A stretch of DNA of 64,000 nucleotides from Nitrospirota bacterium (GTDB lineage Bacteria > JACPQY01): contig JACPAV010000004.1 in the NCBI GenBank assembly GCA_016180645.1, forward strand, positions 157,544 through 221,543. The letters are read 5' to 3'. The position numbers and the translations under genes were made by a program. Under the pieces are notes generated by a model. The model made no database searches and was not told where the DNA came from. It was given only the letters and a program-made list of their open reading frames with translations. This document shows positions 35,417 through 38,648 of this stretch, piece after piece; positions within the stretch are counted from its first letter, which is position 1, and every line of letters starts with the position of its first letter.

Positions 35417-35926
35417 TCAGCGGGTCCCAACTTGCTCGGTTCGGATAAGCAGTTCGGCGGGGGTAACGATCTCGATCCCTTCGTGCGTCCCCAGGACAAG
35501 CAGATCCTTGTCGCCCGTCACCAGTATATCCACCCTCGCCTTAACAGCGGCGGCCAGGATCGCATCGTCGTCCGGATCACGACAAACCCGCGGGGGGTCG
35601 CCCTCAGCGTCAACGACCTCACAAAATCTGCGGATGTTCGCGATGCGCGCGTCGGCCTCCGGCCCCGCGTGCCCGACCTTGGGCAGATGCTCCTTGAGTT
35701 CATCGAGCACCTGCGGGCTCACCACACTTTGGAACGTTCGCAAGGCCGCATGCGCCAGCAGACGGTGGCAGACCCCCAGTGTCGCAAAGGCTGAAAAGAG
35801 CACATTGGTATCGAGGAAAACCCGGCTGCGTGTGGCCGGTGAGCGCCCCGGTGCTCGACCTTGCCCGGCCAAGCGGGGCGGCGCCAAGATGGCAAAGCGG
35901 TTCCGCGACTGGCCGGATGCCACCAA
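35417..35926 (-). CDS. PIN-domain toxin (VapC-like)
   Basis: The PIN domain starts at about residue 36 with RVFLDTNVLFSAFATLG. It shows DELKEHLPK, CRDPDDDAILAAAVKA and ILVTGDKDLLVL, giving the acidic residues that bind the catalytic metal in this ribonuclease fold. It belongs to the COG1569-type toxins. The first 35 residues read through to GTG 35926 without similarity, and no internal ATG precedes the domain, so the true start may be a non-ATG codon nearer RVFLDTN. It follows an RHH antitoxin gene 12 bases upstream, which is the normal order. Confidence 0.82.
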   Translation of the reverse strand: MVASGQSRNRFAILAPPRLAGQGRAPGRSPATRSRVFLDTNVLFSAFATLGVCHRLLAHAALRTFQSVVSPQVLDELKEHLPKVGHAGPEADARIANIRRFCEVVDAEGDPPRVCRDPDDDAILAAAVKARVDILVTGDKDLLVLGTHEGIEIVTPAELLIRTEQVGTR

Positions 35927-35938
35927 GCGGGGAGACCC

Positions 35939-36157
35939 TCAGGAAACCATGTCGAAGATCTGCTCTTCCGAGACGATCCCGCGGGCCGCGGCCCTCTTGC
36001 GCGTTTCAGCAGCCAGCTCCTCGAACTCCTGGAGAGCCAGCTGTCGTTGGAGAGCTTCCCGGACAATGGCGCTCCGTGGGAGCCTCCGCTTCCTGGCGAC
36101 GGCGGAGAGTTGTCGGACAAGGTCTTTGGGGAGGCGAACGGTAATCGCGGCTTCCAT
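35939..36157 (-). CDS. Ribbon-helix-helix antitoxin for PIN toxin
   Basis: This protein of 72 residues from ATG 36157 (84 from GTG/ATG 36193) begins MEAAITVRLPKDLVRQL, an RHH strand-helix start. The second helix is RSAIVREALQRQLAL, followed by an acidic tail (ARGIVSEEQIFDMVS) that would block the toxin active site. It is immediately upstream of the PIN gene on the same strand. RHH proteins bind their own promoter; TGACAATGTAATAC upstream could hold the operator. Confidence 0.85.
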   Translation of the reverse strand: MEAAITVRLPKDLVRQLSAVARKRRLPRSAIVREALQRQLALQEFEELAAETRKRAAARGIVSEEQIFDMVS

Positions 36158-36227
36158 GTCTGACAATGTAATACAACCCGGGTGCGGTGTCAATGCCGTC
36201 GGGTCCGAACGGGATCTGCACGGCTGG

Positions 36228-36478: not shown

Positions 36479-36742
36479 ATGCCCATCGCGCAATCCAGGC
36501 TGACCGCCCAGGGGCAGATCTCGGTGCCCGCGGAGGTGAGGCGGAAACTCGGGGTCGGACCCGGCTCGATCCTGGAATGGGACGAAGCGGGCGAGAAAAT
36601 CCTGGTCCGGCGGTCGGGGCGGTACACCTCGGAAGACATCCATCGGCAGATTTTCGCCGGGAGCGCGCCGCGGCGTCGGAGCACCGCAGAGATCAAGGAA
36701 GGCATCCGCCGGCACATTCGGAAGAGACATGCGGGCGGTTGA
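36479..36742 (+). CDS. AbrB/MazE-type antitoxin
   Basis: This 87-residue protein has an N-terminal swapped-hairpin AbrB DNA-binding domain. The segment MPIAQSRLTAQGQISVPAEV is followed by RRKLGVGPGSILEWD, a classic match, and the C-terminal tail binds the toxin. The stop codon lies 14 bases inside the following PIN gene, the normal coupling of antitoxin and toxin. The tail is rich in Arg, typical of the toxin-embracing segment. Confidence 0.9.
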   Translation: MPIAQSRLTAQGQISVPAEVRRKLGVGPGSILEWDEAGEKILVRRSGRYTSEDIHRQIFAGSAPRRRSTAEIKEGIRRHIRKRHAGG

Positions 36743-37112
36743 CACGAATGTTCTCGTCCGACTGGTGACCCGGGACGATCCGGAGCAAGTGGCCGCCGCG
36801 GAGTCGTTCGTGGAGCGCGGCGCTTGGGTCTCCCATCTTGTCTTGGTGGAGCTGTTGTGGGTGCTGGAATCTGTGTATGGGATTGGGCCGCGTGAACGCG
36901 CTATGACCGTGGAAATGCTACTCCATCACGACCGGTTGACGATCGAGGGTCCGAACGTGGTTTCCGCGGCGCTTGCGGTCTTTCGACGCAAGCCATCCCT
37001 GGGCTTTTCGGACTGCCTGGTGCTGGAGACCGCCCGAACAGCCGGGCACCTGCCCCTGGGAACCTTCGATCGCGCGCTCGGGAGAATGGACGGGGCTCAG
37101 CGACTGGCGTAA
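36729..37112 (+). CDS. vapC: PIN-domain ribonuclease toxin VapC
   Basis: This 127-residue PIN toxin shows MRAVDTNVLVRLVTRDDP, VLVELLWVLESVYG, LGFSDCLVLETARTAG and GTFDRALGRM, giving the four acidic residues of the metal site. VapC toxins cut specific tRNAs or rRNA. The start lies inside the upstream AbrB antitoxin gene (14-base overlap). Full length for the family. Confidence 0.92.
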   Translation: MRAVDTNVLVRLVTRDDPEQVAAAESFVERGAWVSHLVLVELLWVLESVYGIGPRERAMTVEMLLHHDRLTIEGPNVVSAALAVFRRKPSLGFSDCLVLETARTAGHLPLGTFDRALGRMDGAQRLA

Positions 37113-37215
37113 CGCGGCCCAGCGATGTCCACCGCCTCCGGCGAAGACCCTCAAACGCGAAGATTCCTCTCAAACGGTGTTTGACGCACCCCCGGTGGGC
37201 CGGTAGAATCCGCCT

Positions 37216-37488
37216 GTGGGGAACAGGGTTGTTGTCTACACAGCGAGCCTCTGACCGTATTGCATCAAGGCAAAGGCTTTGCTGAAAAAAAGGAATGTCC
37301 CGTTCACGGAGATCAATATGGGTTGGGACGGACCCCTCTGGGATGAATTGGAGAAAAAATCCGGCATGACCACCGTGCCTCAAATCTATCTCGACGATAC
37401 CTGCATCGGGGGCCATGATGAACTCAAGGCCCTCATCGATTCCGGTCGCTTCGAAAAGGTGTTCGCCTCCGTTCTGAGATCGTCATGA
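37216..37488 (+). CDS. Selenocysteine glutaredoxin (in-frame TGA as Sec in UPYC)
   Basis: Read from GTG 37216 with TGA 37252-37254 as selenocysteine, the 90-residue product starts VGNRVVVYTASL, then U-P-Y-C, then IKAKALLKKRNVPFTEIN, and continues with TTVPQIYLDDTCIGGHDEL. That is a complete class I glutaredoxin: VVVYT strand, the active site (CPYC with Sec for the first Cys), TVP cis-proline loop and the GG-glutathione motif. An in-frame TAG at 37204 limits the N-terminus. Standard gene calling would start at TTG 37279 and lose the active site. A short hairpin after the TGA could be the SECIS. The stop overlaps the HD-GYP gene by 4 bases. Sec would speed reduction of glutathione-mixed disulfides. 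Confidence 0.85.
37252..37284 (+). promoter_or_regulatory. Candidate bacterial SECIS hairpin
   Basis: After TGA 37252-37254, bases 37269-37283 can fold as G-GCAAA, loop GGC, TTTGC-T (six pairs including one G-U). The apical loop starts 20 bases after the TGA, inside the 16-37 base range usual for bacterial SECIS, and has Gs at its first positions as SelB binding requires. The stem is short, so this needs testing. Confidence 0.6.
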
Positions 37489-38648
37489 GCGCCCGACCGA
37501 TTGGCCGCATGGAAGCCGCCGGAGCCGGCCGGGTTTCTCCGGGTAAGATCCTCGTCGTCGATGACGATGCCGCCCTTTGCGACACACTGAAGGATGTCTT
37601 CACGGGCGATGGTCATCACGTGGGGATAGCCCGGGACGGGAAGGCGGGGCTCCGCGAGCTTGCGAACGATCATTACGACGTCGTCATCACCGATCTCAAC
37701 ATGCCCGAGATGGAAGGATTGGAACTGCTCTCCCACATCCGTAAGAGTCAGTTCGACGTCTGTCCCATCGTACTCACCGGCTTCGGAACCATCGAGGCCG
37801 CGGTGGAATCGATGAAGCTGGGGGCCTACGACTACGTGCTGAAGCCGTTCAACGTAAACGAATTCCGCGAGGTCGTCTGGAAATGTCTGGCGCGGGTTCG
37901 CGAGGAACGGGAGCACCCGATTCGCGTCGACCGGCTCAAAGCGGAGACGGCGGAGGGCCTCCTTGAAGCCTTGGAAGCCAAGGATCGATACACGCGCGGC
38001 CATTCGGAGCGCGTGGGCCGATACGCCCGGATTCTGGCCGAGGGGCTCAATTTGGGTGACGGAGACGTGCGCCTGATCGAACAGGCGGGGCGGCTCCATG
38101 ACATCGGCAAGATCGGAGTGCGCCTTGAACACCTCAACAAGAGGGGCCCCCTCACGGTCGACGAACACGAGCTCTACAAGCTGCATGTCTCCTATGGAAA
38201 GACAATTCTGGACGTCATCACGCCGTTTCGGAACCTGTCGGAAATGGCCTATCACCACCATGAACGATTCGATGGCAATGGGTATCTTGCGGGTGTTCAG
38301 GGCGCCGACATTCCGCTCGGTGGACGCATCCTCGTCATCTGCGACGGGTTCGACGCCATGACCTCCGACCGACCCTACCGCTCGCGTCTGCCTCTGGGTG
38401 TGGCGGTGCAGGAGCTTCTGCGCTGCTCAGGAACGCAGTTCGATCCTGACCTGGTTCAGGTGTTCGTGCGAAGACTCAAAGAGCTTCACCGTCCGGAAGA
38501 ACTCGAACCGGAAGAGATCGTCATCGCCCGGGAAAGCTCGAAGGGCGGCCTCGGACCGCTGATCTTCACCAAGCGCGCGGTGGATGAGGGTGAAATCCCT
38601 GAGTGGGAATCCGACGGCCGGAAGACCGTGCCGTTCGAACGATACTAA
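37485..38648 (+). CDS. HD-GYP response regulator (c-di-GMP phosphodiesterase)
   Basis: The 387-residue protein has a receiver domain (about 20-140: ILVVDDDAALCDTL, phospho-Asp in VVITDLNMPEMEG, Lys in YVLKPFNVNE) and an HD-GYP domain from about 155 (RYTRGHSERVGRYARILAEG, GRLHDIGKIGVRLEHLNK, MAYHHHERFDGNGYLAG). HD-GYP enzymes break down cyclic di-GMP with a metal site formed by these His/Asp residues. The HD motif is intact; the GYP loop reads GNGYLAGVQG. The start overlaps the selenoglutaredoxin stop (ATGA), hinting at a redox link, which is an inference. Confidence 0.93.
   Translation: MSARPIGRMEAAGAGRVSPGKILVVDDDAALCDTLKDVFTGDGHHVGIARDGKAGLRELANDHYDVVITDLNMPEMEGLELLSHIRKSQFDVCPIVLTGFGTIEAAVESMKLGAYDYVLKPFNVNEFREVVWKCLARVREEREHPIRVDRLKAETAEGLLEALEAKDRYTRGHSERVGRYARILAEGLNLGDGDVRLIEQAGRLHDIGKIGVRLEHLNKRGPLTVDEHELYKLHVSYGKTILDVITPFRNLSEMAYHHHERFDGNGYLAGVQGADIPLGGRILVICDGFDAMTSDRPYRSRLPLGVAVQELLRCSGTQFDPDLVQVFVRRLKELHRPEELEPEEIVIARESSKGGLGPLIFTKRAVDEGEIPEWESDGRKTVPFERY

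What the first reader, a model, noticed from the sequence alone, without database searches (positions are those of the whole stretch)
37216..37488. Selenocysteine-containing glutaredoxin with UPYC active site
The glutaredoxin fold is complete only if TGA at 37252-37254 is read through. Upstream of it the frame gives VVVYTASL, the start of the Grx fold; downstream it gives PYC and the rest of a normal Grx with TVP and GG motifs. The TGA falls exactly at the catalytic Cys of CPYC. An in-frame TAG 12 bases before the GTG start bounds the frame. Sec-for-Cys replacement in glutaredoxins is known as a rare selenoprotein class, but this case is invisible to ordinary gene callers, which would annotate a 69-residue fragment without active site.
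Basis: partly seen in the sequence, partly recalled or inferred. Interest (0 to 1): 0.92.

Follow-up and report, generated by a model that had tools for sequence, protein, structure and literature searches.

The report
Selenocysteine glutaredoxin with UPYC site
A small bacterial redox protein (glutaredoxin) most probably carries selenocysteine, encoded by an in-frame UGA "stop" codon, at its catalytic site; the genome has all the machinery to read it that way, and the class is rare but already known.

Summary
Window 37216-37485 (+) is one open frame of 90 codons if TGA 37252-37254 is read through. The TGA sits exactly at the N-terminal catalytic Cys of a CPYC glutaredoxin (PF00462, E=2e-16 with U read as C; AlphaFold model pLDDT 86; best PDB fold matches are glutaredoxins). 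The same 97%-complete genome encodes tRNA-Sec(UCA), SelA, SelB with winged-helix domains, and a SelD that has its own Sec-UGA, so this organism very probably inserts Sec at UGA. The only other glutaredoxin found is a Cys-type monothiol Grx4. A sigma-70-like promoter (TTGACG-17-TAGAAT) puts the transcription start at about the GTG start codon; the gene overlaps (ATGA) a response-regulator/HD-domain gene.

One weak point: the hairpin after the UGA is poor by the bacterial SECIS model, whereas that of SelD is good. A fresh nonsense mutation or a base-call error is therefore not fully excluded.

Sec-glutaredoxins (UxxC) are an experimentally verified selenoprotein family. A scan of 84,980 genomes for a UP[YF]C pattern found 14 further cases, all betaproteobacterial MAGs, all with tRNA-Sec. 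This is a new member of a known kind, in a phylum with two genomes held here.

The parts
37181..37209 (+). sigma-70-like promoter TTGACG-17 nt-TAGAAT; predicted +1 falls at or next to the GTG start codon (leaderless mRNA). The TAG of the -10 box is the in-frame stop that bounds the frame
   Evidence: scan, 10 of 12 matches; 1 found in the region against mean 0.1 in shuffles
37216..37488 (+). selenoprotein glutaredoxin, 90 codons plus TGA stop; GTG start
   Evidence: translation with TGA=U; PF00462 E=2e-16; Grx fold model pLDDT 86, PDB matches
37252..37254 (+). in-frame UGA read as selenocysteine, U13 of the U-P-Y-C16 motif
   Evidence: aligned with the catalytic Cys of 29 cellular Cys-glutaredoxins and with the UGA of 14 betaproteobacterial Sec-glutaredoxins
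37269..37283 (+). candidate SECIS hairpin GGCAAA-GGC-UUUGCU, loop 20 nt after the UGA (same spacing and GG loop start as in SelD of this genome); weak, and competing with a CAAGGC-AAAG-GCUUUG register
   Evidence: below the energy limit of the bacterial SECIS model when G in the loop is enforced
37485..38648 (+). downstream gene, response regulator receiver plus HD domain, overlapping the Grx stop by ATGA; probably co-transcribed and translationally coupled
   Evidence: ORF list, Pfam PF00072 and PF13487; coupling is inference

Best explanation
The gene encodes a dithiol-type glutaredoxin in which the N-terminal, nucleophilic Cys of CPYC is selenocysteine. Transcription starts at about the GTG. 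At codon 13 the ribosome meets UGA, and SelB delivers Sec-tRNA-Sec(UCA), made by SelA from selenophosphate supplied by SelD. The 90-residue protein then uses Sec13 as the attacking selenolate and Cys16 as the resolving thiol, to reduce disulfides or glutathione mixed disulfides. Shown by sequence: the frame, the motif, the Grx family, the Sec machinery, a second Sec-UGA gene (selD) in the same genome, and the Cys homologues. Inferred: actual Sec insertion, promoter use, redox activity and the GSH dependence.
For: Frame and motif. Grx family and predicted fold. Full Sec machinery in the same genome: tRNA-Sec UCA 73.3 bits, SelA 556 bits, SelB 370 bits with SelB-wing_2 and wing_3, SelD 357 bits with CAGUAGK and a good SECIS. 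Window and machinery loci all have about 60% GC, so mis-binning is unlikely. All 29 cellular homologues read have Cys at the site. 14 betaproteobacterial genomes have the same UPYC arrangement and all 14 have tRNA-Sec. Own promoter and intact frame otherwise. Sec-Grx is a verified family (PMC13188914).
Against: The SECIS hairpin is weak: best constrained energy -4.4 kcal/mol against the model's limit of -7.5, and 44-48% of TGAs in the window do as well; SelD of the same genome reaches -12.3. No close relative exists in the collections to show that the TGA is conserved; the sister genome G001 (84% complete) has neither tRNA-Sec nor this gene. It scores 84.8 bits against the Grx3 equivalog model, cut-off 90, and sits on a long tree branch. 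No reads were available.
Confidence: 0.84

Rival explanations
1. A recent nonsense mutation (TGC or TGT to TGA) has killed an ordinary Cys-glutaredoxin; the gene is a young pseudogene.
For: The SECIS-like hairpin is weak; all cellular homologues outside the betaproteobacterial set have Cys; no relative with a conserved TGA was found in the phylum.
Against: The stop hits precisely the one catalytic codon that Sec replaces, 1 of 34 possible nonsense changes; the other 89 codons and the promoter are intact; the genome has the full Sec machinery and a second Sec-UGA gene.
Confidence: 0.08
2. Base-call or assembly error in a Cys codon.
For: Draft assembly of 65 contigs, no reads at hand.
Against: As for the pseudogene: exact position, and an organism with the Sec trait.
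Confidence: 0.05
3. UGA is read as another amino acid (Cys by a tRNA-Cys with UCA anticodon, or Trp by a changed code).
For: The genome holds a second, Sec-like tRNA-Cys with a long variable arm.
Against: That tRNA has a GCA anticodon, so it reads UGC/UGU; the UCA tRNA is a canonical tRNA-Sec; this gene itself ends at a TGA.
Confidence: 0.02

Closest known systems
Sec-containing glutaredoxin family (UxxC, PF00462; e.g. Geobacter sulfurreducens WP_010943784.1 listed in PMC13188914; Clostridium oremlandii Grx1, U13/C16)
   Same: Sec at the N-terminal catalytic position of a Grx-fold protein, Cys three residues later, even the same numbering (U13, C16) as C. oremlandii Grx1 (PMC4479559); family listed as experimentally verified (PMC13188914)
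   Different: Different phylum; no Sec-MsrA partner here (both MsrA genes lack an in-frame TGA); weak SECIS
UPYC Sec-glutaredoxins of betaproteobacterial MAGs (L029-L031, L033-L036, L038-L043, L045)
   Same: Same UPYC motif, tRNA-Sec in every one of the genomes
   Different: About 35-40% identical; stronger SECIS with loop GGA 17 nt after the UGA; separate, fully supported clade that does not include the window gene
Cys-type glutaredoxin 3 (E. coli GrxC, PDB 1fov) and C. oremlandii cGrx2 (PDB 4tr0, 4tr1)
   Same: Fold (TM about 0.8), CPYC position, TVP and GG motifs
   Different: Cys in place of Sec

Membership tests
Selenoprotein glutaredoxin (UxxC, PF00462) | Glutaredoxin domain and fold | tested here: met
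   PF00462 60.4 bits, cut-off 22.9; AlphaFold model and Foldseek
Selenoprotein glutaredoxin (UxxC, PF00462) | In-frame UGA at the N-terminal catalytic Cys, Cys homologues at that site | tested here: met
   U13; Cys in all 29 cellular homologues read
Selenoprotein glutaredoxin (UxxC, PF00462) | Sec machinery (selA, selB, selC, selD) in the genome | tested here: met
Selenoprotein glutaredoxin (UxxC, PF00462) | bSECIS hairpin: stem 4-16 bp, loop 3-9 nt with G in first two positions, spacing 16-37 nt, MFE at most -7.5 (PMC13188914) | tested here: inconclusive
   Geometry met by GGCAAA-GGC-UUUGCU at spacing 20, energy not met; unconstrained MFE -7.5 has loop AAAG
Selenoprotein glutaredoxin (UxxC, PF00462) | Selenium in the protein | not testable with these tools
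   Needs 75Se labelling or mass spectrometry
Glutaredoxin 3 equivalog (TIGR02181) | Score above the curated cut-off of 90 bits | tested here: not met
   84.8 bits with U read as C
UXX-star selenoproteins (NF041212 and relatives) | Score above the curated cut-off | tested here: not met
   41.4 bits against cut-off 66

The most novel reading that the evidence does not exclude
Because the Grx stop overlaps the start of the response-regulator/HD gene (ATGA) and no clear ribosome-binding site stands before that gene, the UGA could act as a selenium-dependent gate: when Sec is scarce, ribosomes stop at codon 13 and translation of the downstream signalling gene falls as well.
Probability: 0.05. Interest if true: 0.6.

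Novelty: new member of a known kind. Interest (0 to 1): 0.35.

Why it matters
It adds a case to a sparsely sampled verified selenoprotein family, from a phylum with two genomes held here, and shows that such genes are lost to ordinary gene calling, which would give a 69-residue fragment without active site. Its weak SECIS beside the strong SECIS of SelD in one genome offers a natural test of how little structure SelB needs.

Tried and rejected
Sec-MsrA partner as in C. oremlandii ('tandem use of selenocysteine'): two MsrA genes found, neither with an in-frame TGA. Sec-formate dehydrogenase: best hit has no TGA. Glutathione synthesis: the only PF02955 hit is a 300-aa ATP-grasp protein that looks RimK-like to me, and the family also rings in B. 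subtilis among the controls, so this is unresolved. Close relatives: family, order and phylum hold only one other genome, without the gene. UPYC pattern in viral contigs: none. TGA/TAG/TAA flags in other relatives: where a flagged locus was read (L061, L071, L078, L083) the stop was not at the catalytic site but at or after the end of the gene; flagged rows without a locus were not read. In the tree I labelled PDB 4tr0 as Sec-native; its entry title says cGrx2 (C15S variant 4tr1), while the Sec protein is Grx1 (PMC4479559), so that label is probably wrong and the count of label changes there should not be used. The SECIS argument was dropped as support, since random TGAs do as well.

Full report
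What is there. Reading window 37216-37488 with TGA as U gives a 90-residue protein with U-P-Y-C at residues 13-16, TVP at 53-55 and GG at 65-66. With U as C it matches PF00462 at 60.4 bits over the whole family and glutaredoxin 3 at 84.8 bits, five bits under the curated cut-off. The 69-residue fragment that an ORF finder gives scores only 28.4 bits. An AlphaFold model from an eight-row alignment has mean pLDDT 86 with helix 1 starting right after the Sec; the best PDB matches include Clostridium oremlandii cGrx2 (4tr1, 4tr0) and E. coli Grx3 (1fov), TM about 0.8.

Does the organism decode UGA as Sec? The window lies in a 4.7 Mb, 65-contig genome, 97% complete. It holds tRNA-Sec with anticodon TCA (73.3 bits), SelA (556 bits), SelB (370 bits, with GTPase, SelB-wing_2 and SelB-wing_3 domains) and SelD (357 bits). 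SelD itself carries an in-frame TGA in the known place, CAGUAGK, so at least one further gene needs Sec decoding. GC is 60-62% in the window and in all these loci, which argues against a mis-binned contig. The Grx gene itself is 52% GC, perhaps a sign of transfer.

SECIS. The published bacterial model asks for a loop of 3-9 nt with G in the first two places, a stem of 4-16 bp, 16-37 nt from UGA to loop, and at most -7.5 kcal/mol (PMC13188914). SelD fits well: GUCCAGG-GGA-CCUGGAC, loop 20 nt after the UGA, -12.3 kcal/mol. The Sec-Grx of betaproteobacteria that I tested fit well, -9 to -19. The window gene has GGCAAA-GGC-UUUGCU, also with its loop 20 nt after the UGA (it contains a perfect 6-nt inverted repeat in another register). 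Only 1.4% of TGAs in the window have a hairpin that stable at that exact spacing, but 17% do at spacings 14-30. A competing register with loop AAAG is more stable, and with G in the loop enforced the best energy is only -4.4, which 44-48% of TGAs reach. I count this as neutral, slightly negative. The same review notes that some known selenoprotein genes fail the model.

Homologues. All 29 cellular relatives read (L060-L088) carry Cys at the U13 position. A scan of 84,980 species genomes for TGA-encoded UP[YF]C followed by [ST]VPQ and a hydrophobic-aromatic pair gave 17 stretches. Three are chance (L032, L037, L044) and 14 are complete Sec-glutaredoxin frames, all from betaproteobacterial MAGs; every one of these 14 genomes has tRNA-Sec above the Rfam cut-off. 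They form their own clade and the window gene sits apart on a long branch, which fits an independent Cys-to-Sec change but does not prove it. The pattern was narrow, so other Sec-Grx exist that it cannot see.

Context. A sigma-70-like promoter at 37181-37209 (10 of 12 matches; expected 0.1) ends 6 nt before the GTG. Downstream, ATGA joins the Grx stop to a response-regulator plus HD-domain gene. Upstream is a MazE-like/PIN toxin-antitoxin pair. The only other glutaredoxin that the search found in the genome is a Cys-type monothiol Grx4.

How it probably works. Sec13 would be the attacking residue and Cys16 the resolving one, by analogy with C. oremlandii Grx1 (U13, C16; PMC4479559); the review states that Sec raises the catalytic efficiency of these enzymes (PMC13188914). 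The substrate is unknown; the C. oremlandii partner, Sec-MsrA, was not found. Whether this organism makes glutathione is unresolved.

Known or new. Sec-Grx is a verified family (PMC13188914), with ten sequences already in the Sargasso Sea set (PMC1088965) and cases in Geobacter, Alkaliphilus and Moorella (PMC1794560). This is a new member, in a phylum of which only two genomes are held here; the sister genome lacks both the gene and tRNA-Sec, though it is only 84% complete.

Noticed in passing
L002 1501-1592 (G000:C22:24197-24287): A 92-nt tRNA-Cys(GCA) with long variable arm, Sec-like D-arm and U discriminator that scores above the Rfam tRNA-Sec cut-off (47.2 bits against 47), beside an ordinary tRNA-Cys in L003; resembles the selC* tRNA-Cys group reported in anaerobes (PMC7609411). 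It lies on the selA contig; the next-best SelB-like hit (L011) is EF-Tu, so no second selB was seen.
   Followed up: partly
L029-L031, L033-L036, L038-L043, L045: A clade of 14 UPYC Sec-glutaredoxins in betaproteobacterial MAGs with a conserved CCGC-GGA-GCGG SECIS core, some stems of 8 bp; several of these MAGs are titled 'Bordetella parapertussis' in the records, an unlikely name.
   Followed up: partly
L016 1495-2430 (G000:C5): SelD of this genome is itself a selenoprotein (CAGUAGK) with a strong SECIS; ordinary gene callers would truncate it.
   Followed up: yes
window 35417-36193 (-) and 36479-37112 (+): Two toxin-antitoxin-like pairs next to the gene: PIN_3 with ribbon-helix-helix, and MazE-like with PIN.
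   Followed up: partly
window 37485-38648: Response regulator with HD domain whose motif reads DGNGYL rather than the usual DGxGYP of HD-GYP proteins.
   Followed up: no
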